Positions 1 to 21,347 of a stretch of 64,000 nt of DNA are shown in pieces. A model generated the notes under the pieces. That model saw nothing but the letters and a program-made list of their open reading frames with translations. It made no database searches and was not told the origin of the DNA. This DNA is from Polaribacter ponticola (GTDB lineage Bacteria > Bacteroidota > Bacteroidia > Flavobacteriales > Flavobacteriaceae): NCBI RefSeq assembly GCF_026191475.2, contig NZ_JAOSLC020000003.1, forward strand, positions 62,001 through 126,000. Direction: 5' to 3'. Position numbers and translations under genes: made by a program. Positions within the stretch are counted from its first letter, which is position 1; each line of letters opens with the position of its first letter.

Positions 1-593
1 TCTTTCAAATATCGAACACCACAAAATCTTCTCACTCCATATTTTTCATCCAACCACGATGAAGCATATATCAACAGCGGAATTTTTTTATTCAGTTCCC
101 ATTTTGTATCAATATATTTTCTCCAATTAAGTGAGTTTTCTTTTTCAGTATTTTTCATTTCGATACTGTACCCTGTCATTGTAAATCCATAAGTTTTAAT
201 TGATAATTGGCTTTTATTTTCTGAGGGAATATCTTTAGTTATTATTGTTATTTGGTTTATATAGTCATAAAATGGTTGTTCAGATTTAAAATAAGTATAG
301 GTATTATTAGTGTTTACTATTGTGTCGGAAGAAATCATTTGTCCATTTAAATATTCATCCATAACTATATAGAGTTTATATCTTTTGTCAAATTTTCCGA
401 GTTTGAACTTATTAATCCGTATTCCTTGAAATTCTAACATTTCAACTAAATCAATTAATTCTATATCGTCAATTTCTGATATTTGATGTTCTTTTTGAAT
501 TTGAGGTCGGTCATCTTGCTTGAATTTTTCTTGAGAAAAACTATTAATGGAAACTAAAAATAATAAGGTCAAGACAAATTTTAATAATTTCAT
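1..593 (-). CDS. Secreted protein of unknown function, 3' end cut by window edge
   Basis: Open from the ATG at 591-593 to the window edge, giving at least 197 codons. The first about 20 residues form a signal peptide (Lys-Leu-Leu-Lys, then a Leu/Val/Phe-rich core, ending near FSQ), so the product is exported. The mature part is hydrophilic with several aromatic residues and no motif I recognise. It is the cargo of the left-most, incomplete cassette; the first repeat starts 26 bp upstream of its start codon. Coding is supported by length and codon use. Function unknown. Confidence 0.7.
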   Translation of the reverse strand, partial: MKLLKFVLTLLFLVSINSFSQEKFKQDDRPQIQKEHQISEIDDIELIDLVEMLEFQGIRINKFKLGKFDKRYKLYIVMDEYLNGQMISSDTIVNTNNTYTYFKSEQPFYDYINQITIITKDIPSENKSQLSIKTYGFTMTGYSIEMKNTEKENSLNWRKYIDTKWELNKKIPLLIYASSWLDEKYGVRRFCGVRYLK

Positions 594-619
594 ATTTATT
601 TTGTATTTAAATGTTTTAC

Positions 620-745
620 AACGTTGTTGTATATGGTTTGTTGCGTGTTTCAAGCAACTAATTTAGTAAATAATTACGGACAAAGAAAGTCCGCGAGGAC
701 TTTCGCAAGTAGGTAAAAAGCCAGCAATAAATTATATACGGTGTT
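620..745. repeat. attC-like repeat 1 (126 bp, type A)
   Basis: Runs from AAC to GTT. The outer stem pairs GTATATGGTTTGTTGC with GCAATAAATTATATAC, with three G-T wobbles and no mismatch on the plus strand. The inner hairpin is GAAAGTCC-GCGA-GGACTTTC. It differs from repeat 3 at only three positions by eye. Confidence 0.85.
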
Positions 746-758
746 ATATGGCGTTTTT

Positions 759-1376
759 TTATTTCAAAAATGGAATTGCTAAAATATATTCGTTCCTCAA
801 TCCTCTTCGACTTTTTCTAACATTCAAAATTATAAACACTATATTAATTAAATATAATAAAAATAGCATAATCGTTGGTATTGAGAAATGATATATTAAC
901 GCATAAATAGAATTCTTTATGTTAAAACTAAATGGAAAAGATAAAAATTTTTCTCCGAACCACATATTTATAGGAATTAGTAAAACATATAATGTCAAAA
1001 CCCAAGTAATTTGAAAATTCACTATCTTTTTTCCACAATCATCTACATACTTTATTTTTCCCTTTTTCAAAATCCACATTATAAATGGAATTATTATTCC
1101 TAATATTGGATGAATAATAAAGAAAAGGGAACTCCAATTCAGTTGTTGTATGTATCCTTTGTCTTCGATAACTTCCCATTCTAAAAGTTCATCTGGTGTT
1201 ATATTTAGGGCTTGGGTTATTTTAATCAGAGTATCTCCTCTCGAAATTGTTCCAGTTTTTTCGATACGTTGGATTGTTCTTAAACTAAGTTTTGATTCTT
1301 CAGCCAATTGTTCTTGAGAAAATCCTTTTTGATTTCTTAGGTTTTTGATTTTAATTGCTAAGTTTTGATTATTCAT
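759..1376 (-). CDS. XRE-family helix-turn-helix protein with membrane domain
   Basis: 205 residues. Residues about 6-65 are an XRE/Cro-type helix-turn-helix (pattern KIKNLRNQKGFSQEQLAEES, then SLRTIQRIE), continuing to a DELLEWE stretch. From about residue 80 there are three to four hydrophobic segments typical of DUF4870-like small membrane domains, ending in a basic tail. It is probably a membrane-anchored transcription regulator. It is alone in its cassette (746-1490), with 114 bp of upstream DNA that holds a -7-like box and an inverted repeat, so it probably has its own promoter and may regulate itself. The target is unknown. Confidence 0.75.
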   Translation of the reverse strand: MNNQNLAIKIKNLRNQKGFSQEQLAEESKLSLRTIQRIEKTGTISRGDTLIKITQALNITPDELLEWEVIEDKGYIQQLNWSSLFFIIHPILGIIIPFIMWILKKGKIKYVDDCGKKIVNFQITWVLTLYVLLIPINMWFGEKFLSFPFSFNIKNSIYALIYHFSIPTIMLFLLYLINIVFIILNVRKSRRGLRNEYILAIPFLK

Positions 1377-1401
1377 TTTAGATGTTTTAAATATTACTTA
1401 G

Positions 1402-1459
1402 CAAAGATATTTTGAAACTTTATTAATTCTTGTGTCATTATTATGTCAATCTTATGACA
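1402..1459 (-). promoter_or_regulatory. Possible promoter and operator of the XRE cassette gene
   Basis: On the minus strand, TATCTTTG at 1402-1409 fits the Bacteroidetes -7 box TAnnTTTG, about 26 bp upstream of the start codon. Upstream, TGTCAT (1433-1438) and ATGACA (1454-1459) form an inverted repeat with a further TGTCA copy between them. The position is where an autoregulating XRE protein would bind. No clear -33 TTTG was found. Confidence 0.35.
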
Positions 1460-1490
1460 TTTCTGCCAATGTTTGGTTTTAATGCCATAT

Positions 1491-1613
1491 AACGGTTAGT
1501 ATAAGAATAGTAGCGGATTTTTACCCACTAACTTTTCGGTTAAACACTGACCTTTTTTACATTTACTTACTTTCACTTTAGCTATTAAACCGCTATTATT
1601 TTTATACAATGTT
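1491..1613. repeat. attC-like repeat 2 (123 bp, type B)
   Basis: AAC to GTT. The outer stem pairs GTATAAGAATAGTAGCGG with CCGCTATTATTTTTATAC: 18 pairs, two G-T wobbles and no mismatch on the plus strand. The interior differs completely from type A. Shared only with repeat 10. Holds the stop codon of the RelA/SpoT-like gene at 1602-1604. Confidence 0.85.
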
Positions 1614-2498
1614 GTGTGTAGTTTTTATTAATTCAGGTGTTTCTGATAAAAGCTTTTCATTCTTTATTTCTATTACATTTATCAGATACAGTAGATTATT
1701 AAAATTAACAGGTAGTGATAAATCTAATTCGGATATTTTCAATAAAAATGAAGTTCTATCCATTTTTAAAATATGCTTACCAATTGAACTGTCATTATTA
1801 AGAATTTCAATCAATTCAGTTTTCAAGTTTGACAATTGGAATTGAAGCCTAAATTTATTTCTCAATAAAGCTTCCCAATTCTTACTTTTAAAATGACGAT
1901 ACGATAATTCATTGAAAAGATTTTTTAAAGCAATATCATTAGTCTCTAAACTTGCATATATTCCATTTAGAAGTCTTTCACTTTCTTTATGTTCTTTCCA
2001 GTCATTCTTACATTTATATCTTAAACTGTGGTCTATTTCGTGCCATCCTTCTGACAGCATAGTACGCAATTGAAGTTCGAATGTATTATCAATTAAATTG
2101 AAATTTGATTTTTCTGTAGCTAAATTAACTTCTTTTAAAATTTGAATATGGTTTTCATCAAATTGACAGATAATATTAGTTCTTTTAGGTTTAAATACTG
2201 TTAATTCCAGCTCGTCAATTTCCTCGTCTATAAATTTAAATTTATTATTTAAAATCTCTTTAACAACATCGATGTCATCTTTAAAGTAGGTAACAATTCT
2301 AACACCAATTACGTCTTGAATTTTTTTCCCATTTTCTTTATAAGGACTACCTTCATCAATTTTTCTTTGAATTTTTTCAGTTATAGATTTTTCATTCTTT
2401 GTTCTGACAAATATTCTATATAATAAGCCAACTTTATTTAATTCGTTAACAATGTTTTGATGAATTTGTTTCTCGATAATTTGAAAACCTGCTATCAT
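1602..2498 (-). CDS. RelA/SpoT-domain nucleotide pyrophosphokinase-like protein
   Basis: 298 residues. The family core is visible: DVIGVRIV at residues 62-69 (first metal-binding Asp region), ELQLRT at 141-146 (the ExQxRT motif with the second acidic residue) and GWHEIDHSLRYK at 151-162. No HD hydrolase, TGS or ACT domain is present, so this is a small stand-alone synthetase-type protein. The usual G-loop motif with GYxSLH is not evident between residues 70 and 139, so the substrate may differ from GTP/GDP. Its ATG overlaps the stop of the upstream NACHT gene by 4 bp (ATGA), implying coupling. The last codons and stop lie in repeat 2. Likely the effector of a two-gene defence module; this is inference. 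Confidence 0.75.
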   Translation of the reverse strand: MIAGFQIIEKQIHQNIVNELNKVGLLYRIFVRTKNEKSITEKIQRKIDEGSPYKENGKKIQDVIGVRIVTYFKDDIDVVKEILNNKFKFIDEEIDELELTVFKPKRTNIICQFDENHIQILKEVNLATEKSNFNLIDNTFELQLRTMLSEGWHEIDHSLRYKCKNDWKEHKESERLLNGIYASLETNDIALKNLFNELSYRHFKSKNWEALLRNKFRLQFQLSNLKTELIEILNNDSSIGKHILKMDRTSFLLKISELDLSLPVNFNNLLYLINVIEIKNEKLLSETPELIKTTHNIV

Positions 2499-4663
2499 TT
2501 TTTGTCATTATGTTTTAAATGATGAATAGCTTCTCTTGTAATGAAACCAACGTCATCTTTGAAATGTAAATAATCCTTACTTTTTAATGAATCAATGACT
2601 TTATTTATCTCTTTGTCGTGATATTCATTAAGCGACTTCTTTATATAAGAAAATTTTCGAGCCCTTGGTTTTATACCATCAACTTGAAAAAAATGCTTTA
2701 GAACCATTTCTTCTGTGAGTATAGCTTTTTCTTTCTTCTCATTATTTGTTGGGCTATCAAATAGATTTAGAATGTTTTGGACAAAATCATTATTTGAATT
2801 ACAAGCGAATAATGCAAAATCACTATACGGTTTGCTAGTTTGATTATTTATTATTGAACAATCATAAAATGAGCAATTCTGAAATGATGTATCAAAAAAC
2901 AAATTAATATCGAATACACAATTATGAAATATAACGGAAGAGAAGGCAGATGATTCAAATCTACAATCTTCATTAAAATTTAAATTGAATAACTCTCTGT
3001 CTAGAACAAATAGGTTTTTATAAACCCGTTTTGGTTGTTTAGAAAAAGTATAATCCAAATCAAAATAAAAACCAATATCATAATTGAAATTTTCATCATT
3101 GAAAATCGACCACAAATTTTCCTTTTTATTTTTGCTTTGAATTTTGAATGATTCAATAGATTTTGTAGCAAAATCTTGTGGAATTATATTTTCGAAATTT
3201 TCATAATGTTCTTGATATTTTTCTAAAATCAGGTTTTCTCCAATTAGGTGACCAAAAATAAAGTCATTTATGATTCCGACATCTCCATTTGGTTTTCTGT
3301 CAAGGAATACGTGGTTTGAAAGGGTTTCAATTAAATCTTCTATAGATGGTTTTTCTTCAGCGATATAAAGTTTTAGGCTGTTTTGTAATAGCTTTTGGTT
3401 GTATTCTTTGATAAAATCTTTAATCGTTTCTTTAGATTCAGCTGTTATGTTATACTCTGTCATAAACCTAACCAACTTTCTAAAAATTCTTAACTGGTCA
3501 TCGTTATTTAATTTTAGATTTTGTCTTTGTTGTTCTCTTTTTAATAAATAGTCAAGATATTTATCAATTAAAGCACCATCATTGCTTTCGTGTACATAAC
3601 CTTTAAGAACATCTAAAGAAATATTTCTTAAATATGATAAAAGTACTGGGTTCGCTATTTGAGCAACTGGAAAGCTTGCATTATCAATAACTTCAATCCT
3701 GTCATTGTCTAACCAGTTTTCAATTTTTGGCTCTTTTATTTCAAATCTTGCAAGTGAAAATTCGTTGTTTGAATCGTAAATTGAATTTAGAAATTCATCG
3801 CTATTAAATATTGCAGTTTTTCTTGATGTAATGATGATTTTTGCGTCTCCCTTTAGAAGTTCTATAATAGTGGTTAACATACTTTCAACCTCTTCTTTAT
3901 TACTCTCTTTGGAAATTAACTCATCAAATCCATCAATAATGAGTGGAATCCTTCCTTTAGTTATTTGTTCGATAACTATATTTTGTTTTATCCCATTTGG
4001 AAACTGTTCATCAATTTCATTTAATAAAATATGTTTGAAAACTCTAGCTTCTCTGTTCCTTGAAAGTTCAGTAAAAAAAGGAAGTTGCTTACATTCGCTA
4101 GGTGAAAAAGTGTTAAGTATTTCGTTAGCAGTACAAGTTTTTCCAAATCCAGCAGGTGCTTCAATGATTATGAAAATGGCTCCATTAACTTTACTTAATA
4201 AACCGTTTATTTTATCAATTAGATTAATTTCAAAATTAGAATCGTAGGATTTATTCTCTACAATATTTTTCGATTCATCTTGAAGTAATAAGTCAAAAGA
4301 ACTATTAATATACTTGTATGTACTTCCTTCTGGTAAATTTTGGAGTTGTCTGTTTACAAAATGTTTGTATCTATTTTTTAATTCATTTCCAAGTGGTGTC
4401 TTTATAAAAAAACCTTCAAATAAATACTCTTCTATTTCATCAATATCATCTAGTACTCTCACATCAGTTGCGAAACCTAATTCAGAGTATTCATTTTTAA
4501 TTTTTGAAATGTCATAATCTTTATCAAATAGTATGAATTCAGCAGCGTGATACATACCATATCTTAAAGTATACACTCTAACCTTAAGGTTTGACTGATT
4601 TGCTAATTGATAATTGTAAGACAGAAAAAGCTTGTCTATATATTCTATTTTATCTGTTGTCAT
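2495..4663 (-). CDS. NACHT-family NTPase
   Basis: 722 residues. The P-loop APAGFGKT is at residues 169-176 and the Walker B motif LIIDGFDEL at 241-249, which is the NACHT/STAND pattern with acidic residues after the hydrophobic strand. A helical region follows. Residues about 560-620 resemble pentapeptide-type repeats (CRFESSAF, CVFDINLFFDTSF, CSFYDCS). The first about 130 residues form an N-terminal domain I do not recognise. First gene of a two-gene cassette, coupled by a 4-bp overlap to the RelA/SpoT-like gene. Bacterial NACHT proteins are known anti-phage sensors, so it probably detects a phage cue and releases the downstream enzyme. The cassette boundary (AAC 4685-4687) is 21 bp upstream of its start. 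Confidence 0.8.
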   Translation of the reverse strand: MTTDKIEYIDKLFLSYNYQLANQSNLKVRVYTLRYGMYHAAEFILFDKDYDISKIKNEYSELGFATDVRVLDDIDEIEEYLFEGFFIKTPLGNELKNRYKHFVNRQLQNLPEGSTYKYINSSFDLLLQDESKNIVENKSYDSNFEINLIDKINGLLSKVNGAIFIIIEAPAGFGKTCTANEILNTFSPSECKQLPFFTELSRNREARVFKHILLNEIDEQFPNGIKQNIVIEQITKGRIPLIIDGFDELISKESNKEEVESMLTTIIELLKGDAKIIITSRKTAIFNSDEFLNSIYDSNNEFSLARFEIKEPKIENWLDNDRIEVIDNASFPVAQIANPVLLSYLRNISLDVLKGYVHESNDGALIDKYLDYLLKREQQRQNLKLNNDDQLRIFRKLVRFMTEYNITAESKETIKDFIKEYNQKLLQNSLKLYIAEEKPSIEDLIETLSNHVFLDRKPNGDVGIINDFIFGHLIGENLILEKYQEHYENFENIIPQDFATKSIESFKIQSKNKKENLWSIFNDENFNYDIGFYFDLDYTFSKQPKRVYKNLFVLDRELFNLNFNEDCRFESSAFSSVIFHNCVFDINLFFDTSFQNCSFYDCSIINNQTSKPYSDFALFACNSNNDFVQNILNLFDSPTNNEKKEKAILTEEMVLKHFFQVDGIKPRARKFSYIKKSLNEYHDKEINKVIDSLKSKDYLHFKDDVGFITREAIHHLKHNDKK

Positions 4664-4684
4664 TCATTTTTTTAAATTACACAC

Positions 4685-4810
4685 AACGTTGTTGTATATG
4701 GTTTGTTGCGTGTTTCAAGCAACTAATTTAGTAAATAATTACGGACAAAGAAAGTTCGCGAGGACTTTCGCAAGTAGGCAAGAAGCCAGCAATAAATTAT
4801 ATACGGTGTT
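4685..4810. repeat. attC-like repeat 3 (126 bp, type A)
   Basis: AAC to GTT. Same stem as repeat 1, with three differences overall; the inner hairpin has GAAAGTTC pairing with GGACTTTC through one wobble, and a GCGA loop. Confidence 0.85.
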
Positions 4811-4821
4811 AGCACACGTTT

Positions 4822-5916: not shown

Positions 5917-6418
5917 TGTTTATAAATATAGTTTTAATGTAAATACCTTTTGTGTCAAAAATGCGAAAATCTCCACGATGATTGACTACTAAAAATAATA
6001 TCAATTCATTTTTTAAATTGTAAATACCGAAAGTTCTTTTATCTACTACTTTTAGATAGAGAGACTTTTGACCAAATTCATTTTCTACATAAATACGGTC
6101 TTCAAATGTATTTTTATTATTCTCGGATTTATATGATGTTGTTTTTGGCGTGTAATAGGATGAATAAAGCGTGTTTATTTTATTGTCTGGTTCAATCCAA
6201 CCTGCTGTTCCAGTATATGGATTCGTGTTTCCTTTTGTAGAAAAATTATCTCTGTTTGTTGAGTTTGGTGCAGTTCTATAGTATGGTGCTACATAAGTGC
6301 CATTACTTTTAGTGTATCCTTTAACTTTGACGTGTTTTGAGCTGACCTGTGCAATAGACGAAAGACAAACAAAAAATGTCAGTAAAAAAAGAAAGATATA
6401 TTTCAAAGATATATTCAT
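5906..6418 (-). CDS. Secreted protein with GYTKSNGTYVAPYYRT motif
   Basis: 170 residues. Signal peptide at residues 1-23 (ends SIAQ). The mature N-terminus carries a short segment (VKVKGYTKSNGTYVAP, then RTAPNSTNRDN and NPYTGTAG) that recurs in many Bacteroidetes exported proteins; its role is unknown to me. The C-terminal half is a beta-rich domain. Middle gene of the cassette, overlapping the TPR gene by 11 bp and 4 bp from the upstream gene, so the three are co-transcribed. Confidence 0.65.
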   Translation of the reverse strand: MNISLKYIFLFLLTFFVCLSSIAQVSSKHVKVKGYTKSNGTYVAPYYRTAPNSTNRDNFSTKGNTNPYTGTAGWIEPDNKINTLYSSYYTPKTTSYKSENNKNTFEDRIYVENEFGQKSLYLKVVDKRTFGIYNLKNELILFLVVNHRGDFRIFDTKGIYIKTIFINNED

Positions 6419-6422
6419 CTAT

Positions 6423-6920: not shown

Positions 6921-6943
6921 ACGGATTTTTTTAAATGTGTGCT

Positions 6944-7068
6944 AACGTTGTTGTATAAGGTTTGTTGCGTGAATTTTGCACTAATTTAATAAATAATTAC
7001 TGACAAAGAAAATCCGCGAGGATTTTCGCAAGTAGGTAAGAAGCAAGCAATAAATTTTATACGGTGTT
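6944..7068. repeat. attC-like repeat 4 (125 bp, type A)
   Basis: AAC to GTT. Outer stem GTATAAGGTTTGTTGC with GCAATAAATTTTATAC. The inner hairpin is GAAAATCC-GCGA-GGATTTTC, a compensatory change against repeats 1 and 3. Confidence 0.85.
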
Positions 7069-7085
7069 GTAAATAGTTTTTTTCC

Positions 7086-7880: not shown

Positions 7881-7920
7881 ATTTTTCTCTTTTTATCTTA
7901 ATTTTTGTTAAATTATTTAC

Positions 7921-8048
7921 AACGTGTTATGTATAACATTAGTTGCTAATTAAGTAAATAATAAAATAATTAATTAGTTCAACATCTACACAATAAGCTA
8001 TGTCTATTTTAGATAAGCTATTAGTAGCAATTAATTTTATACGGTGTT
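7921..8048. repeat. attC-like repeat 5 (128 bp, variant type)
   Basis: AAC to GTT. Outer stem GTATAACATTAGTTGC with GCAATTAATTTTATAC has one C-T mismatch. The inner part does not carry the GAAAGTCC hairpin of type A. Flanks (TATTTAC before, GTAAATA in the preceding cassette start) fit the cassette rule. Confidence 0.8.
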
Positions 8049-8161
8049 GGCAACAGTATTTTTAATTTCTAATATTGTTTTGTCAGCCTTAACACATTAA
8101 TCTTTAAAATATTGTGTTATGTCAAAATTCCTCATTTCTTTAAATCGTTCTTTAGATAAAA

Positions 8162-8590: not shown

Positions 8591-8612
8591 TTTTAAGTAA
8601 TTTTAATAATTT

Positions 8613-9055: not shown

Positions 9056-9057
9056 AT

Positions 9058-9707: not shown

Positions 9708-9833
9708 AACGTGTTTGTATATGATTTGTTGTGTGGTTTAAGCAACCAATTTAGTAAATAATTACCGTCCAAGAAAGTCCGCGAGGACTTTCGCAAGTAG
9801 GCAAGAAGCCAGCAATAAATTATATACGGTGTT
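9708..9833. repeat. attC-like repeat 6 (126 bp, type A)
   Basis: AAC to GTT. Outer stem GTATATGATTTGTTGT with GCAATAAATTATATAC; wobbles are again G on the left arm with T on the right. Inner hairpin GAAAGTCC-GCGA-GGACTTTC. Confidence 0.85.
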
Positions 9834-10590: not shown

Positions 10591-10716
10591 AACGTTGTTG
10601 TATAAGCTTTGGTGCGTTGGTTTAGCAGTAAAGTTACTAAATAATTACTAACCAAGAAAGTCCGAGAGGACTTTCGCAAGTAGGAAAGAAGCCAGCAATA
10701 AAGTTTATACGGTGTT
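10591..10716. repeat. attC-like repeat 7 (126 bp, type A)
   Basis: AAC to GTT. Outer stem GTATAAGCTTTGGTGC with GCAATAAAGTTTATAC, one mismatch. The inner hairpin loop is GAGA instead of GCGA, still GNRA. Supplies the last codons and stop (10705-10707) of the CPBP gene. Confidence 0.85.
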
Positions 10717-11591: not shown

Positions 11592-11715
11592 AACGTGTTT
11601 GTGTATGATTAGTTGCGTGGTTCAGCACGAAAGTTAGCAAATAAAAACCGAATAGAAAATCCGCGAGGATTTTCGTAAGTAGGCTATAACCAAGCAATTA
11701 ATTATACACGGTGTT
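11592..11715. repeat. attC-like repeat 8 (124 bp, type A)
   Basis: AAC to GTT. The stem boxes are changed in concert: GTGTATGATTAGTTGC pairs with GCAATTAATTATACAC (GTGTAT/ATACAC instead of GTATAT/ATATAC). Inner hairpin GAAAATCC-GCGA-GGATTTTC. Confidence 0.85.
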
Positions 11716-11729
11716 GCCCACAGTATTTT

Positions 11730-12618: not shown

Positions 12619-12627
12619 ATTGTGGGC

Positions 12628-12753
12628 AACGTTGTTTTGTATGGTTTGTTGCGGTTTTAAGCAATAAAGTTAATAAATAAAACACTAACCAAGAAAATCC
12701 GCGAGGATTTTCGTAAGTAAGCAATTTGCAAGCAATAAATTATACAAGGTGTT
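12628..12753. repeat. attC-like repeat 9 (126 bp, type A)
   Basis: AAC to GTT. The stem is TTGTATGGTTTGTTGC with GCAATAAATTATACAA, a further concerted change of the terminal box. Inner hairpin GAAAATCC-GCGA-GGATTTTC. Confidence 0.85.
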
Positions 12754-12782
12754 GGCACCAGTATTTTTTCATTCGTATTGTT

Positions 12783-13244: not shown

Positions 13245-13272
13245 TTTTCGGTTTCAGTTTTTTATTGGTGCC

Positions 13273-13395
13273 AACGGTCTAGTATAAGAATAGTAGCGGA
13301 TTTTACACACTAACTTTTCGGTTTAGAACTGACCTTTATTTTATGTTTATACTTTCGTTTTATCACTTAAACCGCTATTATTTTTATACATTGTT
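13273..13395. repeat. attC-like repeat 10 (123 bp, type B)
   Basis: AAC to GTT. Same 18-bp stem as repeat 2 (GTATAAGAATAGTAGCGG with CCGCTATTATTTTTATAC), with the interior diverged. Lies downstream of the restriction-modification cassette. Confidence 0.85.
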
Positions 13396-13428
13396 GTACA
13401 CTGGCTTTTTTTCATTCAGTTTGTCAAT

Positions 13429-13502
13429 CAGCGTTGGCGTGAAAGCTCTTTTAAATTTGTGAGGCACGAACAAACTTTAAATGTGCTTGAACTTGCGTTG
13501 GC
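13429..13502. repeat. Structured direct repeat, left copy, flanking the RM operon
   Basis: About 74 bp beginning CAGCGTTGG. Arms AAGC...TTTAAATTTGT and ACAAACTTTAAA...GCTT enclose a conserved loop GAGGCACGAA. The partner copy is at 17655-17730. It ends next to the HsdS stop codon and could act as its terminator. Confidence 0.6.
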
Positions 13503-13503
13503 T

Positions 13504-14694
13504 TTATTCCAAATATTTTTTCAATATGGCTTCTTTCTGTTTTGGAATTTCAGCTATTTGTTTTTCAAATTCCGTAATTTCATTCTCTAAATTTTCTATT
13601 TCAACATCCACTTTTTCCTGTTCTGCCATTGTGGGAAGTGGGATTTTAATTCCTTCGATTCTATCTATTGAAGCTCTTTTTGTTCTTGAAAACCCAATTT
13701 GCTTTCCTTCTTTGTCTAAACAATATGCAATATATCTAGCTTTTGCTATTGGTTGTTTAATTCTCAAATAACCACAATGATCGGTTGGATAAAATGGTAT
13801 GTTTGCAGGAATTACATTTACCATCCAATCACCGTCTATTCCCCAAACTACCGAAGAAGTTGAAAAATCGGTTAAAAGTTCTTTATTTATAAACCCAAAA
13901 GGTTCAAAAACATTGGCACTGTACACAGGATATTTCCCTTGATTGCTTATTTCACTTTTTAAAACTCTTTTTCCAATTTTAGTTTCAAAAATATCTGTGT
14001 CGCTTAATCGTACAGATTTAGTTGCTTTATTAAACAAGGTTTCTAAAGAAGTATTAATGTGTTCTTTATGCGTTAGTATTATATTTTGTAAATCTTGCTC
14101 TTGCTTTTCTAAAACCTCAATTTCATCAACTATCTTTTGTTGAATATCTAACGTTGGAAGAGGTATTTTAAAATTTAATAAATCTGTTTTAGATAAATTA
14201 AATTGAACACTCCCAAAACCTAAGTTTCTAAGTTGAGTTCTACTAATTTCAGATTTTAAAATACTATTTAGATAACTAGGGATAATTTTATCAAGTTTAA
14301 AGTTTATAAACTTTCCAACCCTTTGGTTCAAAAGAAAAGTAGTTCTACTTGTATTTTTAAAAATGGTGGGAATTGCAAGTAGATTTAAATCACTATTCAT
14401 ATCAGTCATTGCAATAACAATATCTCCGTCTTTTAAAACAAAATCTTTATACTTTTCTGAAAAGTTATCAGGTAGAAAAGTTTTTTTATAATCTAAATCT
14501 AATACTCCTTTCAGTCTAATATTTGCTTGTCTAAAATTCAAAACGTTTGAACTTTCAACATAATCAGCACTTTTGAAAGCAAAACCATTTTGAAGATTAA
14601 CAAATTCTTTGAGTGGGAATACATTCCACTTAGTCTGAATTTTTACTTTTTTTAACTGAAAGCGATATGTTTTGCTCAAAATCTGCTCGGTCAA
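13504..14694 (-). CDS. hsdS: Type I-like restriction-modification specificity subunit (HsdS)
   Basis: 396 residues with the duplicated architecture of S subunits. The first target-recognition domain is about residues 22-185 (WNVFPLKEFVNLQNGFAFKS) and its spacer coiled coil about 186-205 (KIVDEIEVLEKQEQDLQN). The second recognition domain is about 225-360 and its coiled coil runs from IPLPTMAEQEKVDVEIENLE to the end. It overlaps the end of the methyltransferase gene by 65 bp in another frame. The start used is the only ATG upstream of the first domain. A seven-A run in the overlap (14647-14653) leaves the true junction uncertain. It gives the DNA sequence specificity of the system. Confidence 0.85.
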   Translation of the reverse strand: MTEQILSKTYRFQLKKVKIQTKWNVFPLKEFVNLQNGFAFKSADYVESSNVLNFRQANIRLKGVLDLDYKKTFLPDNFSEKYKDFVLKDGDIVIAMTDMNSDLNLLAIPTIFKNTSRTTFLLNQRVGKFINFKLDKIIPSYLNSILKSEISRTQLRNLGFGSVQFNLSKTDLLNFKIPLPTLDIQQKIVDEIEVLEKQEQDLQNIILTHKEHINTSLETLFNKATKSVRLSDTDIFETKIGKRVLKSEISNQGKYPVYSANVFEPFGFINKELLTDFSTSSVVWGIDGDWMVNVIPANIPFYPTDHCGYLRIKQPIAKARYIAYCLDKEGKQIGFSRTKRASIDRIEGIKIPLPTMAEQEKVDVEIENLENEITEFEKQIAEIPKQKEAILKKYLE

Positions 14695-17215
14695 ATGTTA
14701 GCATATCAATTAAATTTTGATAGCTTACGTTTTTTTGAAGCGTTTCAGGAATGTCTAAATCGAACTTGTTTTCAGTAAACGCTCTGTATATATAAGTGCT
14801 AGCTTTATTTTCGTTAGTGAAACTTTTCATATCATAAAGCTGTGTGCATTCGTCAATGGTTTTGCTACGTTTTATAGGGTGCATTCCTTCATTCCCTCTA
14901 CGATTACTAAAATCGTAACCTAAAAACTGTTTTTCTTTTGCCTTTTGACCTGTTTTTACTAAAACAACTTTTTGATTATATGTTAGAATAAAATAAAGTA
15001 ATTTGTCTTTTTCTATTTCTAGTATTTTACTCCATTTTTCATCTTCCTTTTTAGCTTTTATCTTTTTGTCGTATTCATTAAATATTTCGTGTTGCTTTAT
15101 AGCTTCGTTCGGTTTTTTCTGCAATAAGGTTTTATAATCTTGAAAAGAAATGTTTTCCCAAACGTGAGATATATATTTCTCTATTGGTTTTTCAATACCG
15201 TTTATAGTAATGTCTTTAAGATTTGTAAAGAATGTAGCTAGAGATTTTTCTACTTGTTCGGCAATAGTATCTTCTCTACGTTTTAAAAATAAAGTAACCG
15301 TATTTGTTCCTGTAGCCATAAAAGTGCCAGAGCCTAGTTCTGTAATTGCTATTATGTCAAAAGCTTTTAAAATAATCTCTCTTGCTTGTGAATATAAACC
15401 CGAATTACTTAAAATAGAACTTGGTAATATTATGGCTGCAATACCGTCTGTTTTTAGTAATTGTTTAGTACGTTCAATAAACAAACATTCTATTTCAGAA
15501 CTTCTATCGCTTAGACTGTCAAACAATTTAAAATCCTCATTAGCGGAAGCATTTTTCAAATCACCTTTAAAAGAACTTACAGAATATGGCGGATTAGAAA
15601 CAATAAACGAAAATTGAGGTTTTTCAGCATTTTTCTTTAATAGTCCTCTGTAACTTTTGGAATGTTTGAAACTATCTAATCCATCTCCGTGAATAACTTG
15701 TGCTAAACCATCTCCATAAAAATAACAGCCAACTTTTGCGACTTTTACTAAACGATAATCTTTTTCTATACCATAAACATATTTACTTGCCCAATCGTAT
15801 TTCTTTTTTCTCCAAACTTCCACAAAATCTTCAGCTTCTTGTGTTTCTAATTTAGAGGTATCAATATCATTCTCAATAGTACGTTGGTACTCTTCCATTA
15901 CTTCGGTTAAGAAGTGACCACTACCAACACTATAGTCAATCACAGCAGGAAGTTCTGGAATTGATTGGTTTAATTGTTTCTTTATGTATTGTGAAATAGG
16001 TAATGAGCGAACTATGAAACGTGTAATTGGTGGTGGTGTGAAAAACTGACCAGCTTCTTGTTTCAACCCAGTTGTTAAAAGACGTTCAAAGAAATCGCTT
16101 AAATGTTGTTGTTTTCTAGGATAACGAATTCTAAATTTTTGAAGTAATTGAACTACTTCTTTTAATACTTTTTGATTGTCCTCAAAAGTTTCTTCATCAA
16201 ATACATCCTTTATATCGTAAACCTTATTGAATAGTAAAATATGTTTCTTTTTTTCTTCTAATTCTTTTTGAGTTTTATAGCTAAACATATCATCTGAAAT
16301 TCCTCTAACTTCTTTTTTTAAGAAGTCATACATTCCAGATTTGTATAGGTTTATAAGTCTGATTTGAAAATCAACTGCATTGTCTTTGTGTTCTTTCCAT
16401 TGAAAATCAAGTTCCTTATCATCTCTCTTTTTTTCATCAAATATTTTAGCGAGAAAAAGATTAAAAATCTTATTAAATGCGTTGGGTTTGTCTGAGACAG
16501 AATGCTTTCTAAGTATAGATAAAAATTCGTGAAATATTTTTTTACTATCTTCTTCGTTCAGTGTTTTTAAATCATCTTTGGTTAGTTTCTTGCTTTCAAA
16601 CAAATAAGGTTTTACCCAATCGTCAAATATTCCGTTGGTATTGGTTACTTTATTCCATCTATCATAAACATCTTCTACATTTCCAGCTTGTCTGTAATGC
16701 TCCTCAATTTTTATTATTTCATTTTTAAACTGGATTTTGTTTTTGTCTAATTTAGAAGCATATAACATCAAAATATCAGCAGACTTGTCTTGTTGAAAAT
16801 AGGTCATTAACTGACCGCCATTTGTTTCGGTTTTTTTAAACTCTTTTTCAAATTCTTTTCCCCAAGTCTTACATTCTATCATTAAATAAGCAGAGCCATC
16901 TTTACGAGTAACTAGAATATCGAGCCAACCACCACTTGCTCCGTGTCCGACTGTGTATTTTTTTTCTAAAACTATATGTTCTGGTTTGTACCCTTTTTCT
17001 AGTAATCTGTCTATACACTCTAAAACAACCCAATTTTCAGCTTGTGAGAAATTTTGAGTAGTTGTTCTTCCTCCAATTATTTTGCTTCCGAAATCAAATT
17101 GTTGTTTTTCAAAATCAATTTCAATTGAATATCCATTATAGTTTTTATGAAAAATTCCAGAAGTGTTTTCTTTAGGTATAAATCCTAATACTTGTATGAG
17201 TTTCTTTGTATCCAT
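14630..17215 (-). CDS. hsdM: Fused nuclease/N6-adenine methyltransferase of a type I/IIG-like RM system
   Basis: 861 residues. The N-terminal about 130 residues resemble the HsdR_N nuclease: LDILV (D99) and IECK (E114, K116) form a PD-(D/E)XK pattern. After a helical linker the HsdM-like methyltransferase begins: GQFFTP at 389-394, SAM-binding DYSVGSGHF at 427-435, and the catalytic NPPY at 541-544. Cutting and methylation are thus on one chain with a separate S subunit, and no separate HsdR gene is seen. Last of three in order after a small XRE regulator (4 bp gap), before hsdS (overlap). Likely a type IIG/IIB-like or hybrid type I system; no helicase motor is present. Confidence 0.85.
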   Translation of the reverse strand: MDTKKLIQVLGFIPKENTSGIFHKNYNGYSIEIDFEKQQFDFGSKIIGGRTTTQNFSQAENWVVLECIDRLLEKGYKPEHIVLEKKYTVGHGASGGWLDILVTRKDGSAYLMIECKTWGKEFEKEFKKTETNGGQLMTYFQQDKSADILMLYASKLDKNKIQFKNEIIKIEEHYRQAGNVEDVYDRWNKVTNTNGIFDDWVKPYLFESKKLTKDDLKTLNEEDSKKIFHEFLSILRKHSVSDKPNAFNKIFNLFLAKIFDEKKRDDKELDFQWKEHKDNAVDFQIRLINLYKSGMYDFLKKEVRGISDDMFSYKTQKELEEKKKHILLFNKVYDIKDVFDEETFEDNQKVLKEVVQLLQKFRIRYPRKQQHLSDFFERLLTTGLKQEAGQFFTPPPITRFIVRSLPISQYIKKQLNQSIPELPAVIDYSVGSGHFLTEVMEEYQRTIENDIDTSKLETQEAEDFVEVWRKKKYDWASKYVYGIEKDYRLVKVAKVGCYFYGDGLAQVIHGDGLDSFKHSKSYRGLLKKNAEKPQFSFIVSNPPYSVSSFKGDLKNASANEDFKLFDSLSDRSSEIECLFIERTKQLLKTDGIAAIILPSSILSNSGLYSQAREIILKAFDIIAITELGSGTFMATGTNTVTLFLKRREDTIAEQVEKSLATFFTNLKDITINGIEKPIEKYISHVWENISFQDYKTLLQKKPNEAIKQHEIFNEYDKKIKAKKEDEKWSKILEIEKDKLLYFILTYNQKVVLVKTGQKAKEKQFLGYDFSNRRGNEGMHPIKRSKTIDECTQLYDMKSFTNENKASTYIYRAFTENKFDLDIPETLQKNVSYQNLIDMLTFDRADFEQNISLSVKKSKNSD

Positions 17216-17220
17216 CTCGA

Positions 17221-17544
17221 TTAGAATTTTAATTTTCCTTGTTTTGCGTTTATTGCTTTGATATATGTTGATTGGTCTTCTGCAACTTTAAAAATTTTAT
17301 CAGAACATTTATATTCAAAAGCTTCTTTTGCAAATTTGTCTGCAAAATACAAGTCTTTAACTTGGTTGTAATCTAGTTCAAATAATTGGGCAAGTAATTT
17401 CAATTTGCCAACTGGAAATTTTTTATGGTCATTCTCAATTTTACTAACAGCAGGTGTATTAATTTTGACTTTCGCTCCGAATTCAGTCTGACTCCAGCCT
17501 TTTTCTTCTCGGTGAGTTTTTATGTAGTTTCCGAAACTTGCCAT
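17221..17544 (-). CDS. XRE-family regulator of the RM operon (controller-like)
   Basis: 107 residues. Residues about 5-60 form a helix-turn-helix of the XRE class (KTHREEKGWSQTEFGAKV, then PAVSKIENDHKKFP). It is the first gene of the RM operon, directly upstream of the methyltransferase, where controller (C) proteins sit to delay nuclease expression. The promoter at 17583-17614 lies just upstream of it and is the likely site of autoregulation. Confidence 0.8.
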   Translation of the reverse strand: MASFGNYIKTHREEKGWSQTEFGAKVKINTPAVSKIENDHKKFPVGKLKLLAQLFELDYNQVKDLYFADKFAKEAFEYKCSDKIFKVAEDQSTYIKAINAKQGKLKF

Positions 17545-17582
17545 TAGTTTATTATACTTTTTATTGTTTTACCCAATTTTGG

Positions 17583-17614
17583 CAAAGTTATATATTTCTC
17601 AGTCCATAAACAAT
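17583..17614 (-). promoter_or_regulatory. Bacteroidetes-type promoter of the RM operon
   Basis: On the minus strand, ATTG (17611-17614) is followed after 20 bp by TAACTTTG (17583-17590), matching the -33 TTTG / -7 TAnnTTTG consensus with a one-base change. It shows that this cassette carries its own promoter. Confidence 0.6.
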
Positions 17615-17654
17615 TTTTTTGACATATAAAAATCATCTTCATAAAACTTATTTT

Positions 17655-17730
17655 CAGCGTTGGGAAAAGGCAAGCTCTTTTTATTTTTTGAGGCACGAAA
17701 AAAATGAAATGTGCTTGACTGTGCGGCTGG
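17655..17730. repeat. Structured direct repeat, right copy, flanking the RM operon
   Basis: About 76 bp starting CAGCGTTGG, with loop GAGGCACGAA and arms that keep pairing despite changed sequence (TTTATTTTTT against AAAAAAATGAAA). Same orientation as the 13429-13502 copy. Confidence 0.6.
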
Positions 17731-17745
17731 ATTCAGCTTGTGTAC

Positions 17746-17869
17746 AACGGGTTTGTATAAGATTAGTTGCGTGTTTTAAGCACTAAAGTTAGCAAATAAA
17801 TCACAGATAGAAAGTCCGCGAGGACTTTCGTAAGTAGGCTAGAACCAGCAATTAATTTTATACGGTGTT
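17746..17869. repeat. attC-like repeat 11 (124 bp, type A)
   Basis: AAC to GTT. Outer stem GTATAAGATTAGTTGC with GCAATTAATTTTATAC, two G-T wobbles and no mismatch. Inner hairpin GAAAGTCC-GCGA-GGACTTTC. Confidence 0.85.
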
Positions 17870-17896
17870 GTATGCCGTTTTTTTTCATTCCGATTA

Positions 17897-19363
17897 TTAA
17901 ACTTTAGAAGCTGATGCTTTTCTTGTTGCGTCTATTACTACTATGTTTTCGTGATTCTCTTTTTTAATTTCTTTTAAAACTTTATTGACCTTTCGGATAT
18001 CTGATGATGTATAACATAAAACTACTGAAATATCACTAGCAGATTTTGATGCAGATTTATAGACGTCTGTTTGGTTTTCTAAGTTTCTCTTTAACGAAGT
18101 TGATTTAGCTAACTTAAATTCAACAATAGTTGAATCTCCACTTCCAAAAGAAACTTTATAATCTGCTGGACCACGACCATTATTTACTTCCGCATTAACA
18201 TCATATGGTGAAGCATACCAAGTCAATCTAAATATTCTTTGTATAGTGTCTTCCTTCGCAATAGGTCTATGACCATCGTAGAAAATACGATAACCATCAT
18301 TATTTTCGATTACGTCTTTTAGATACAAAGCTCTTTTAAGAGATTCATCATAACTATTTGACTGTAATTTGTAAAAATCACTATTCTTATTTAGTAACTC
18401 GCATAGTGGTGTTAGAGCATCAACTAATTTTTCTTTTAGTTCATTAATTTGCGACATAGAAGCAGAAGTAACTTCATACTTTTTGTCTTCTTTTAGTTTT
18501 ATATAAAAGTCTACTAAATCAGGGAATTTCCTGATTGTTTTTAAGAATGCATATTCTTTATCTTTCTTTTTTGGTTTTCTTGGTAAATGAGACCTAAAAA
18601 AATCATTAATAGCTGAACGTAAAGATGAATTTTCTAAAGACCTTGTTACATTGTTAAAGCTTGAATAAAAATCAGAATTGTTGATTACAGCATCATCTAC
18701 TGTTAAAATATCTAAAGGTGTTAGAATAATGAAATCTCCACCGTTTTCTCTAAAAAAGTATGGCAGTTTAAAAGTTCTAGGTTGCCATATTTTTGTTTTT
18801 TTATCGAATCGACACCTTATTGAAAAGTCTTTAGTTTGATTTTCTTTTAAATGCTTTTTTGCGAAATTTTCGGTAAACTCAAGTAGATATTCTTGTATTA
18901 AGTTTGTCGTAAAATCACTAATAAAATCTTTTCCAACTCCAGAATTTAAAAGAGTCAATTTTTCTATATGAGTTTCGGCAGTTATTTCTTCTTCTCCAAA
19001 AGTGCTATAAAAACCATTAAAAGCTGTAATAGCTCCATTTGCAAATTTCTTTCCTAATCCTTTTCCTCCATTTCCATATTTTGCCAATCCTAACCAATTT
19101 TGTTTGATTTCGGGAAATTTGAATAGATTTAAATTGACATCTATTCCGTTATTTTCTGTCGCAAATTCTTTTAAAATTAGTAAATGTTCAACTACTTTTT
19201 TATGAAGTTCTTTATATTCTGGTTTTTCAGATGCAAATAATAAAAATGGGTCAATAAACATTGGTAAGTCAGAACTCAAACAAATATTTAATGCTCCAAA
19301 TTTTTCTAAAGTTGAATTGTCAATTTCAAAATAGTCGGAAAAAAGTAATTTAAAATTAGACAT
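17897..19363 (-). CDS. PD-(D/E)XK nuclease-like protein of unknown family
   Basis: 488 residues, sole gene of cassette 17870-19410. The C-terminal about 120 residues carry a PD-(D/E)XK-like core: ADYKVSF (Asp), a turn, then IVEFKLAKS (Glu-x-Lys), preceded by a helix and followed by a strand (DISVVLCYTSSD). The long N-terminal part (residues 1-370) has no motif I know but a Gly/Lys-rich segment near residue 97. Its position beside an RM cassette and the nuclease signature suggest a defence or restriction role. The exact function is unknown. Confidence 0.65.
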   Translation of the reverse strand: MSNFKLLFSDYFEIDNSTLEKFGALNICLSSDLPMFIDPFLLFASEKPEYKELHKKVVEHLLILKEFATENNGIDVNLNLFKFPEIKQNWLGLAKYGNGGKGLGKKFANGAITAFNGFYSTFGEEEITAETHIEKLTLLNSGVGKDFISDFTTNLIQEYLLEFTENFAKKHLKENQTKDFSIRCRFDKKTKIWQPRTFKLPYFFRENGGDFIILTPLDILTVDDAVINNSDFYSSFNNVTRSLENSSLRSAINDFFRSHLPRKPKKKDKEYAFLKTIRKFPDLVDFYIKLKEDKKYEVTSASMSQINELKEKLVDALTPLCELLNKNSDFYKLQSNSYDESLKRALYLKDVIENNDGYRIFYDGHRPIAKEDTIQRIFRLTWYASPYDVNAEVNNGRGPADYKVSFGSGDSTIVEFKLAKSTSLKRNLENQTDVYKSASKSASDISVVLCYTSSDIRKVNKVLKEIKKENHENIVVIDATRKASASKV

Positions 19364-19410
19364 ATTTCATTTTTTTGATGGATTGTTCTTGGTTTGGTCA
19401 AATGGCATAC

Positions 19411-19536
19411 AACGTTGTTGTATAAGCTTTGTTGCGTGTTTCAAGCAACTAATTTAGTAAATAATTACTAACCAAGAAAGTCCGCGAGGACTTTCGTAAG
19501 TGGGCAAGAAGCCAGCAATAAAGTTTATACGGTGTT
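19411..19536. repeat. attC-like repeat 12 (126 bp, type A)
   Basis: AAC to GTT. Outer stem GTATAAGCTTTGTTGC with GCAATAAAGTTTATAC, two G-T wobbles and no mismatch. Inner hairpin GAAAGTCC-GCGA-GGACTTTC. The repeat closest to the recombinase. Confidence 0.85.
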
Positions 19537-19550
19537 GTACACAGTAATTT

Positions 19551-20099
19551 TTATTTCATTATAAATGTCAATCCAATTCCTATAGCAATGAGTGGAAAAA
19601 GAAAAATTATTTGACTTGTAATTATCCAAAATAGAAATTTAGTCCACTGTAGAAAATTCATTTCTGTCGTATTTTCTTTTTTAGTAATTCTAATTAGTTC
19701 AGAATATTCCATTTTCATAAAGTTGGATTTACTAATTTTTAAATCGATTATTCCTATTTCATTTATTCCTTTCTTAAAACCTTTAAAAACTGATTTTGGA
19801 TAAATCCATAAACTGTAACCCATTGCCCATAAACTCAAAAAACCTAATTGAAAATGTTTCCATATTCCAGTTGAAATTTCCCAACCAGCAATAAACCCTT
19901 CTCCTTTCCAAGAAGTGTCACAATTATTTAAAATATGTTGAATGTCGTGAATATGTAATGCTTCTCTTCTGAATTCCGGATTAGGTAAATTTAATTTAAG
20001 TCCAAACACTTTAAATTCAAAAGTATCGTCGTCAATTCCACCATCTTTTGGAATTCCGTTTTTTGCATAAAATTCAGTTAATAATTTATCTAATGTCAT
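19551..20099 (-). CDS. Membrane-anchored protein with Coq4-like HDxxH motif
   Basis: 182 residues, in the cassette next to the recombinase (19537-20119), which in an integron is the most recently gained position. Residues about 47-75 contain HIHDIQHIL followed by GEGFIAGWE, which resembles the HDxxH...E metal motif of Coq4-type proteins. A hydrophobic helix lies near residues 85-100 and another at the C-terminus (about 150-180). The resemblance is by eye only; the function could be unrelated. Confidence 0.5.
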   Translation of the reverse strand: MTLDKLLTEFYAKNGIPKDGGIDDDTFEFKVFGLKLNLPNPEFRREALHIHDIQHILNNCDTSWKGEGFIAGWEISTGIWKHFQLGFLSLWAMGYSLWIYPKSVFKGFKKGINEIGIIDLKISKSNFMKMEYSELIRITKKENTTEMNFLQWTKFLFWIITSQIIFLFPLIAIGIGLTFIMK

Positions 20100-20119
20100 T
20101 TTCGTGGTTTATTGTGTAC

Positions 20120-20222
20120 AACTTATTTATATACGGAGCTTTTATCCGTTTTTTAGTCTAATTGAGAATGATATGCAGAAGTTTAGTTACTTTATATCTT
20201 TCTTTGTTATAAAAATAATAGA
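20120..20222. other. Array-recombinase junction, possible attI-like site
   Basis: The last cassette ends TGTGTACAAC at 20113-20122, complementary to its own start, but no full repeat follows. Instead there is a short sequence with TATATACGG and an inverted ACGGA/TCCGT pair, then the recombinase stop codon. This is where an attI-equivalent would lie. On the minus strand the junction reads CCGTATATAAATAAGTT before the first cassette. Confidence 0.5.
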
Positions 20223-21347
20223 TTAAAATAGATCATCAAATGGATTTTTAATTTTTTTTAAACTAGTATCTGTTACATGGGTATAAATCATTGTAGTTTT
20301 TGGGCTACTATGACCTAATAATTCTTGAATATATCTAATATCGGTGCCTTTTTCTAATAAATGTGTTGCAAAACTATGTCTTAAAGAATGAAGAGTTATC
20401 TTCTTCTTTATTCCGGCCTTAAAAAGTGCATTTTTTAATACTTTTTGCGCACTTGTATTGCTATATTTCCCTCCTTTTTGACCTTCAAATAAATATTTTT
20501 CTGGTTTATATGCAATATAATATTCTCTTAAAATTTTCACAAATGCTGGAGACAAAAGTGTATATCTATCTTTTTTTCCTTTAGCTTGCTTTATATGAAT
20601 TAGCATTCTTTCACTATCTATATCAGTAATCTCTAAATTTATTGCTTCTCCAATTCTTAATCCTCCAGAATATAATAAACTTAAAAGCACCTTATGTTTA
20701 AGGTTAGTAATAGTGTTAAAAATTGCTTTTATTTCATTTCCACTAAGTACAATTGGTAATCTTTTTTCTTTTCTAGGTCTTTCGAGATGAACTTCTTCAT
20801 AAGAGAAACCTTTATACTCAAAAAACTTTTTTATACCACTTATAAATTGATTTTGATATGAAATAGATTTATTAGGAATATAAATATAATCATAACTAAA
20901 AGCTTCCACTATTTTTGTAGAATAAATATCAGCTTTTTTTAAAAGTGCATACTTAATATATGTAGTGGTAACGTCTACATAAGTGTTAATAGTGTTTTTA
21001 CTCAATCGTTTTTGATATAACCATTTTTTATATTTATTCAAATCATTTTTTATTGATTCAGGAATTTTATCAATTAAATGAGATTTTTGTTTTTCTGTTA
21101 TTTTACTTTTATTAATAAATTGTTGGAGTGTTGCATAATCAATATGCCAATTAGGATTTTTTAAATGTGTAAAAACTATCCTTAAGTTTTCTAAGGATAA
21201 TTCTACATAATAAGATCTTAAAGTTTGACTCCAATTGATAATATCGAGACTTTTAAGACGTTTTTTTATTTCAAGATCAAAAATAAATTCAATTGTTAAA
21301 ACATTTTTATTTCTAAGCTTAGCAGTACTTAAAGTTATTTTTTTCAT
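20223..21347 (-). CDS. Tyrosine recombinase next to the cassette array
   Basis: 374 residues. An N-terminal extension of about 100 residues (arm-binding-like) precedes a SAM-like core-binding domain (about 103-180) and the catalytic domain. The catalytic set is complete: R231 (in GGLRIGE), a Lys in the KGKKDR hairpin (256-259), H320 and R323 (HSLRH), H346 (LLGHSS) and Y355 (MIYTH). The 30-40 residue insertion between the Lys hairpin and HxxR that marks integron IntI integrases is absent, so it looks like a XerC/D-related enzyme. It is transcribed toward the array and ends about 100 bp from the first cassette. Likely the integrase of the cassette system; this is inferred from position. Confidence 0.85.
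   Translation of the reverse strand: MKKITLSTAKLRNKNVLTIEFIFDLEIKKRLKSLDIINWSQTLRSYYVELSLENLRIVFTHLKNPNWHIDYATLQQFINKSKITEKQKSHLIDKIPESIKNDLNKYKKWLYQKRLSKNTINTYVDVTTTYIKYALLKKADIYSTKIVEAFSYDYIYIPNKSISYQNQFISGIKKFFEYKGFSYEEVHLERPRKEKRLPIVLSGNEIKAIFNTITNLKHKVLLSLLYSGGLRIGEAINLEITDIDSERMLIHIKQAKGKKDRYTLLSPAFVKILREYYIAYKPEKYLFEGQKGGKYSNTSAQKVLKNALFKAGIKKKITLHSLRHSFATHLLEKGTDIRYIQELLGHSSPKTTMIYTHVTDTSLKKIKNPFDDLF

What the first reader, a model, noticed from the sequence alone, without database searches (positions are those of the whole stretch)
1..21347. Integron-like cassette system in a Flavobacteriaceae genome run by a non-IntI tyrosine recombinase
Twelve 123-128 bp structured repeats separate twelve cassettes with unrelated cargo, next to a tyrosine recombinase. 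Repeat size, boundary boxes and layout match integron attC arrays (compare Vibrio VCRs). However, the enzyme lacks the insertion between the Lys hairpin and HxxR that defines IntI, and is oriented toward the array. It may be an independently evolved or highly diverged integron system in Bacteroidota.
Basis: partly seen in the sequence, partly recalled or inferred. Interest (0 to 1): 0.95.

Follow-up and report, generated by a model that had tools for sequence, protein, structure and literature searches.

The report
Bacteroidota integrons without an IntI integrase
This Polaribacter-like genome carries an array of 43 gene-cassette sites running away from a tyrosine recombinase that is not the classical integron integrase; the same pairing recurs in many related genera, where it likely captures and shuffles genes the way integrons do, although no recombination has been tested.

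Summary
Twelve 123-128 bp sites (AACACCGTATAA...CAACGTT, minus strand) delimit twelve cassettes next to a 374-aa tyrosine recombinase; 43 sites fill the first 82 kb of the contig. Each window cassette carries its own 7-nt tag at both ends as an inverted repeat beside GTT/AAC (12 of 12); in 34 arrays 246 of 283 neighbouring site pairs do, against 145 of 3,654 non-neighbours. Folded in silico, the bottom strand wins at 304 of 317 sites, the strand bias of attC. Sites occur in 217 of 249 genomes of the family, this recombinase in 158, canonical IntI in none. In 32 of 35 recombinase loci (16 preselected), 285 sites lie downstream on the recombinase's strand. Whole cassettes, 87-93% identical, recur in different genera beside unrelated neighbours. 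The enzyme lacks IntI's 42-residue insertion (0 of 62 relatives have it, 11 of 11 IntI do), falls outside the IntI clade, and carries an N-terminal domain weakly resembling HARP/XPB fork-DNA modules. Best reading: an integron-type cassette system with its own integrase family, termini (GTT-N7-A, not GTTRRRY) and attI. Not shown: activity, and whether it arose independently of IntI.

The parts
20223..21347 (-). tyrosine recombinase (374 aa), proposed integrase of the array
   Evidence: R231 K256 H320 R323 H346 Y355 invariant in the 51-row alignment; no IntI insertion
21108..21347 (-). N-terminal domain of the recombinase (about residues 1-80), HARP/XPB-DRD-like in the predicted model (weak match)
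   Evidence: PF07443 at E 7.7e-4 in 1 of 51 members, not the window's own
20110..20162 (-). proposed attI: GTT at 20122-20120 followed by tag GTACACA; weak imperfect inverted repeat at 20133-20149 just upstream
19411..19536 (-). attC-like site 1 (126 bp), end of cassette 1
17746..17869 (-). attC-like site 2 (124 bp), end of cassette 2
13273..13395 (-). attC-like site 3 (123 bp), end of cassette 3
12628..12753 (-). attC-like site 4 (126 bp), end of cassette 4
11592..11715 (-). attC-like site 5 (124 bp), end of cassette 5
10591..10716 (-). attC-like site 6 (126 bp), end of cassette 6
9708..9833 (-). attC-like site 7 (126 bp), end of cassette 7
7921..8048 (-). attC-like site 8 (128 bp), end of cassette 8
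6944..7068 (-). attC-like site 9 (125 bp), end of cassette 9
4685..4810 (-). attC-like site 10 (126 bp), end of cassette 10
1491..1613 (-). attC-like site 11 (123 bp), end of cassette 11
620..745 (-). attC-like site 12 (126 bp), end of cassette 12; the array goes on to the left of the window
17870..19410 (-). body of cassette 2: 488-aa protein, match to candidate defence family PDC-M36A (E 9.5e-22 over half of its length)
13396..17745 (-). body of cassette 3: HTH protein, adenine methyltransferase and specificity-like subunit (split type IIG-like restriction-modification)
1614..4684 (-). body of cassette 11: NACHT protein with NA-iREase2 domain, and RelA/SpoT-domain protein
746..1490 (-). body of cassette 12: HTH plus DUF4870 protein; a 99.9% copy of the cassette (body and site) lies at G000:C3 40-60 kb
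   Evidence: named window-_11 in the scripts

Best explanation
This is an integron-type gene-cassette array whose adjacent non-IntI tyrosine recombinase is predicted to cut and join the cassettes at the folded bottom strand of their attC-like sites. Inferred working: each cassette is excised as a circle between two sites. In the circle its two 10-nt ends (GTT-N7 and N7-AAC) pair and close the outer stem of the hairpin, and a top-strand A.C mismatch just outside (G.T on the bottom strand) would mark the strand to be used. The recombinase (R-K-H-R-H-Y residues in place) would recognise the hairpin with its core domains and perhaps with the N-terminal HARP-like domain, instead of the insertion that IntI uses, and insert the cassette at GTT in the attI-like site, usually 29-131 bp behind its own stop codon, so that new cassettes join next to the integrase. 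Shown: array anatomy, tag pairing, predicted strand bias, linkage of enzyme and array, recurrence of whole cassettes. Inferred: chemistry, hairpin recognition, role of the N-terminal domain, attI use.
For: Cassette tags pair in 12 of 12 window cassettes and in 246 of 283 neighbouring pairs in 34 arrays against 145 of 3,654 non-neighbouring pairs; in named loci 26 of 33. Predicted folding: bottom strand better at 304 of 317 sites; cassette interiors lean the other way (79 bottom, 197 top of 283). Stem covariation 0.380 against 0.103 shuffled and at most 0.067 slid. Linkage: 32 of 35 recombinase loci have sites downstream on the same strand, 285 sites, 0 downstream on the other strand; 42 of 42 matches in 17 of 80 further named loci likewise. 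Sites in 217 of 249 family genomes, recombinase in 158 of 249; by my comparison of the two lists 155 of the 217 and 3 of the 32 others have it (Fisher test). No IntI match at E 1e-45 in those 249; the same search finds IntI over its cut-off in 57 of 198 phylum genomes. attI tag match of at least 6 of 7 in 25 of 33 loci against 42 of 1,052 swapped tags. Whole cassettes shared between genera with unrelated neighbours.
Confidence: 0.88

Rival explanations
1. It is a highly diverged ordinary integron: the recombinase descends from an IntI that lost the insertion, and the sites are ordinary attC.
For: Best integron-model score in the genome (189 bits, two pieces around the missing insertion); array recombinases plus IntI form one side of a branch, though with support 50/37; site design and strand bias are those of attC.
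Against: Below the TIGR02249 cut-off of 265; IntI is a separate 100/100 clade and the array recombinases a 99/96 clade, neither inside the other; 0 of 62 have the insertion; GTTRRRY in 15 of 272 cassettes.
Confidence: 0.3
2. The sites are substrates of a canonical IntI elsewhere, and the neighbouring recombinase is a passenger.
For: A site lies next to a canonical IntI in one genome (L216). A published assay (PMC9892861, passages read) found that an attC from a Polaribacter phage is used by IntI1; the phage holds sites that our model recognises.
Against: No IntI match at E 1e-45 in 249 genomes of the family, with 57 of 198 positives in the phylum as control; the recombinase sits at the array end in 32 of 35 loci; two other canonical IntI regions, L224 and L225, hold no such site.
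Confidence: 0.04
3. The repeats are a dispersed hairpin element (REP- or MITE-like) or terminators that happen to lie between genes.
For: Single copies are scattered over the genome, and the repeats fold.
Against: Tags beyond the repeat pair across whole cassettes, which dispersal does not predict; 285 of 289 sites lie on one strand and one side of the recombinase.
Confidence: 0.02
4. The array is a relic: cassettes were once mobile, but the system is inactive today.
For: No activity data; the same sigma/anti-sigma genes lie beside the recombinase in another genus (L031, 1 of 17 loci searched).
Against: Intact catalytic residues; 99.8-100% cassette duplicates at separate places of the own array (L082 and window), which need recent movement unless they are assembly errors.
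Confidence: 0.08

Closest known systems
Sedentary chromosomal integrons (IntI, attI, attC; for example the Vibrio superintegron; general features recalled)
   Same: Cassettes of one or a few genes ending in a palindromic site; GTT/AAC boundary; cassette ends complementary; bottom strand folds better; insertion point beside the integrase; dozens of cassettes; genes mostly in one direction (227 of the 246 cassettes with an ORF of 50 aa).
   Different: Integrase outside the IntI clade and without its insertion; tags of 7 rather free bases followed by A (271 of 272) instead of RRRY (15 of 272); about 14-bp imperfect terminal repeat with a conserved A.C; integrase gene reads towards the array in the main subtype; extra N-terminal domain in many members.
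Inverted-integrase integrons such as Treponema denticola (recalled, not from a call)
   Same: Integrase and cassettes in the same direction.
   Different: There the integrase is a canonical IntI (recalled).
XerA / NCBIfam NF040815 'site-specific tyrosine recombinase/integron integrase'
   Different: XerA resolves chromosomes at dif (recalled); this family sits at cassette arrays and mostly has an added N-terminal domain.
CALINs in phages (PMC9892861, passages read)
   Same: Polaribacter phage P12002L has sites recognised by our model (59.3 bits at best) with partly matching tags (5-6 of 7 in 4 of 6 neighbouring pairs).
   Different: A lone cassette cluster in a phage; the paper treats the sites as ordinary attC.

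Membership tests
Integron (classical) | IntI integrase with its additional domain | tested here: not met
   19-25 residues where IntI has 60-61; 0 of 62 array recombinases, 11 of 11 IntI
Integron (classical) | Integrase scores over the IntI model cut-off (TIGR02249, 265 bits) | tested here: not met
   189 bits in two pieces; 0 of 249 family genomes over the cut-off among matches at E 1e-45
Integron (classical) | Integrase inside the IntI clade | tested here: not met
   IntI 100/100 and array recombinases 99/96 are separate sides
Integron (classical) | attC with GTTRRRY/RYYYAAC core boxes | tested here: not met
   GTT and AAC are there (sites without them were dropped before the count), RRRY in only 15 of 272 cassettes
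Integron (classical) | Cassette ends complementary, so that a circle re-forms the outer attC stem | tested here: met
   12 of 12; 246 of 283 against 145 of 3,654; weaker (32 of 56)
Integron (classical) | attC folds preferentially on the bottom strand | tested here: met
   304 of 317 sites by predicted DNA energies
Integron (classical) | attI next to the integrase | tested here: met
   tagged GTT within 600 bp of the stop in 25 of 33 loci, control 42 of 1,052; sequence evidence only, function untested
Integron (classical) | Integrase-catalysed cassette excision and insertion | not testable with these tools
   no experiment possible
XerA/XerCD chromosome-dimer resolution | Acts at a single dif site of the chromosome | not tested
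   dif was not searched for; the enzyme lies beside an array of 43 other sites
HARP domain (PF07443) | Profile match over the gathering score and the same fold | tested here: inconclusive

The most novel reading that the evidence does not exclude
Bacteroidota hold a second, phylum-wide class of integron that arose from XerA-like recombinases independently of IntI: it evolved the same trick (single-strand hairpin sites, bottom-strand choice, attI beside the integrase) with a fork-DNA-binding HARP-like domain in place of IntI's insertion, and it is the main cassette-shuffling system of the Flavobacteriaceae.
Probability: 0.4. Interest if true: 0.97.

Novelty: new variant of a known kind. Interest (0 to 1): 0.9.

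Why it matters
A survey with the standard tool reports few integrons in Bacteroidetes proper (only integrases without cassettes in the earlier study, then one complete integron in Salinibacter; PMC9024848, passages read). Here 217 of 249 genomes of the window's family carry the sites. If the enzyme acts on them, a large gene-capture system has been overlooked because searches require IntI. It would also show that IntI's additional domain, described as necessary for integron recombination (PMC9668308, passage read), is not needed for cassette arrays, and would give a comparison enzyme to work out how folded single-strand DNA is recognised. The window's cargo includes restriction-modification-like and NACHT genes.

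Tried and rejected
Dispersed repeats, terminators and a passenger recombinase were considered and rejected (see rivals). The C-terminal SPLD/NPFD motif first looked like an IntI signature but is shared by archaeal and candidate-phylum relatives, so it was not used. A cross-phylum negative control for the site model could not be run and is replaced only by the absence of matches in the roughly 24 non-Bacteroidota loci among the 80. Blastn with one window site found no phage and two Tenacibaculum plasmids. The two plasmids share flanks at 98.7-99.9% identity and differ in the array between them, but a 2.5-kb recombinase/IS91 element ends at the sites and the tags do not pair in the two pairs that could be tested, so this strain comparison is only suggestive. 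The attI inverted repeat exceeds the 95th percentile of shuffles in 13 of 25 loci, but the window's own is weak; its role is unknown. The sigma/anti-sigma neighbours recur in only 1 of 17 loci searched, several with short flanks. Literature: ten searches of the held library listed no paper whose title or abstract start describes this system; preprints are not held and most listed papers were not opened, so prior description is not excluded. Eight papers were searched for terms and seen in passages only (PMC8618304, PMC9668308, PMC9024848, PMC2426708, PMC9892861, PMC8352920) or gave no passage for the terms (PMC11551772, PMC7370490). Rows dropped: of 346 matches entered; left out were a stretch overlapping the window (L083), opposite-strand duplicates, sites without AAC and GTT near their ends or close to the end of a stretch, and loci with a single site.
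Full report
Observation. Twelve structured repeats of 123-128 bp lie at 620-19536 on the minus strand, read 5'-N7-AACACCGTATAA ... TTATACAACAACGTT-N7-3'. They end twelve cassettes with unrelated cargo: HTH/DUF4870, NACHT plus RelA/SpoT, TPR, Rce1-like protease, a split type IIG-like restriction-modification set, and many proteins without a family match. A 374-aa tyrosine recombinase (20223-21347, minus) reads into the array. In the genome the array goes on to the start of contig C3: 43 minus-strand matches at C3:1106-81536 and 74 matches in all, with 150 of 7,067 candidates scored. The nearest named relatives of the recombinase are Polaribacter (77% identity); on that ground I take the unnamed family f1 of the genome searches to be the Flavobacteriaceae (inferred).

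Tag pairing. The bases outside each repeat vary, yet the seven after GTT at a cassette's start are the reverse complement of the seven before AAC at its end: 7 of 7 in eleven window cassettes, 6 of 7 in one; the first cassette starts at a GTT 103 bp behind the recombinase stop. In 34 arrays with 317 sites, 246 of 283 neighbouring pairs reach at least 6 of 7, against 145 of 3,654 non-neighbouring pairs in the same loci. In named loci 26 of 33 do, in the 20 regions 32 of 56. This is what a circular cassette with a re-formed outer stem predicts. The tag is followed by A in 271 of 272 cassettes, faced by C at the other end in 214 of 246, then about three more paired bases. RRRY is met in only 15 of 272, so the end design differs from classical attC.

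Strand bias and covariation. With DNA energies the bottom strand folds better at 304 of 317 sites (top at 9, equal at 4), by a median of 3 kcal/mol; cassette interiors lean the other way, 79 bottom and 197 top of 283. On 148 distinct sites 21 of 24 stem pairs show changes on both sides, 91.6% of cells are paired against 75.6% shuffled, and the covariation score is 0.380 against 0.103 shuffled and at most 0.067 when slid. That alignment was fitted to the model, which favours it; the twelve-site alignment made without structure gave 13 of 24 predicted pairs with two-sided changes.

Linkage of enzyme and array. A model from the twelve sites (R1) finds matches in 217 of 249 genomes of the family and the recombinase is found in 158 of 249 at E 1e-45. 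Comparing the two lists by hand, 155 of the 217 site-bearing and 3 of the 32 site-free genomes have it (Fisher test; genome size and kinship are not controlled). In 35 recombinase loci, 32 have sites downstream, 285 sites in all on the recombinase's strand, none downstream on the other strand, none upstream on the same strand, 4 upstream on the other (L099). Sixteen of these loci (L060-L075) had been picked because sites were seen nearby; of the other 19, sixteen have downstream sites. In the window's own genome 13 places match PF00589; by the coordinates only two of them have three or more sites within 20 kb: this recombinase and a shorter relative at C1:27595-28419, whose array is divergent. 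Further site clusters without such a gene lie near the ends of contigs C2 and C4. Eight loci chosen because sites were near show the divergent layout (L206-L213); their tags pair less often (20 of 36).

attI. The first cassette's tag recurs after a GTT within 600 bp of the recombinase stop in 25 of 33 loci (24 of them at 29-131 bp), against 42 of 1,052 tests with other loci's tags. In 13 of 25 the 40 bases before it hold an inverted repeat above the 95th percentile of shuffles, the clearest 22-27 bp long and ending 4-7 bp before GTT.

Cassettes move as units. Of 272 delimited cassettes (median body 693 bp) 227 have their longest ORF in the sense of the site, 19 antisense, 26 none of 50 aa. Cassettes were cut at the GTT points and compared: some bodies align end to end between different genera at 87-93% identity (others at 74-85%, some only in part), while the neighbouring bodies do not align wherever both could be compared (L061/L072/L077/own genome; L062/L077; L067/L075; L068/L097; L089/L097). 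In the window's genome the cassette at 620-1490 has a 99.9% copy at C3 40-60 kb, with an unrelated neighbour on the side that could be compared.

Spread. With a broader model (R2) sites are found in 58 of 198 phylum genomes, the recombinase in 70 of 198. Sites occur on plasmids of Chryseobacterium (L180, two weak matches behind the recombinase) and Tenacibaculum and on the lytic Polaribacter phage P12002L. A published assay (PMC9892861, passages only) reports that one of two attC tested from that phage was used by IntI1 on its bottom strand and not on its top strand; which of our matches that is could not be checked. One match lies beside a canonical IntI in the usual divergent layout (L216), so the site classes overlap.

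Verdict. It works like an integron on the anatomical tests that could be run, except for the RRRY box, and fails the tests that define IntI. I file it as a new variant of integron-type cassette systems with its own integrase family. Activity, hairpin recognition, the role of the N-terminal domain, and an origin independent of IntI remain inferred or open.

Noticed in passing
G000:C1:27595-28419 and about 29,980-33,410 (L212): A second array in the same genome: a shorter relative of the recombinase with six sites in divergent layout; three of its sites have equal-scoring matches at the end of contig C2 (902695-904174). Tags pair in only 1 of 5 neighbours.
   Followed up: partly
L228 16242-18758; L229 11612-14128 and 14809-17348: On Tenacibaculum plasmids a stretch of about 2.5 kb with a tyrosine recombinase gene (and IS91-type transposase gene where annotated) ends at attC-like sites in three copies: possibly a mobile element that targets these sites.
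   Followed up: partly
L227 (Polaribacter phage P12002L) 31,100-39,700: A lytic phage carries several short and long matches to the site model around DNA methyltransferase genes; phages may carry cassettes between hosts.
   Followed up: partly
L160 (Clostridium sp. CS001): A recombinase matching residues 4-373 of the window protein falls inside the Bacteroidota clade in the trees; no site was found near it.
   Followed up: no
G000: C2 and C3, scattered; C2 and C4 ends: Isolated sites far from the array (for example C2:538901, C3:2375355, C3:1252756), some with high scores, and clusters without a recombinase near contig ends.
   Followed up: no
window 21474-22802; L031 1570-2752: A similar anti-sigma/sigma gene pair flanks the recombinase in another genus (1 of 17 loci searched), which hints at an old, sedentary chromosomal place.
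   Followed up: partly
window 22834-24216: A long ORF next to the sigma/anti-sigma pair looks caspase-like by eye; no family search was made.
   Followed up: no
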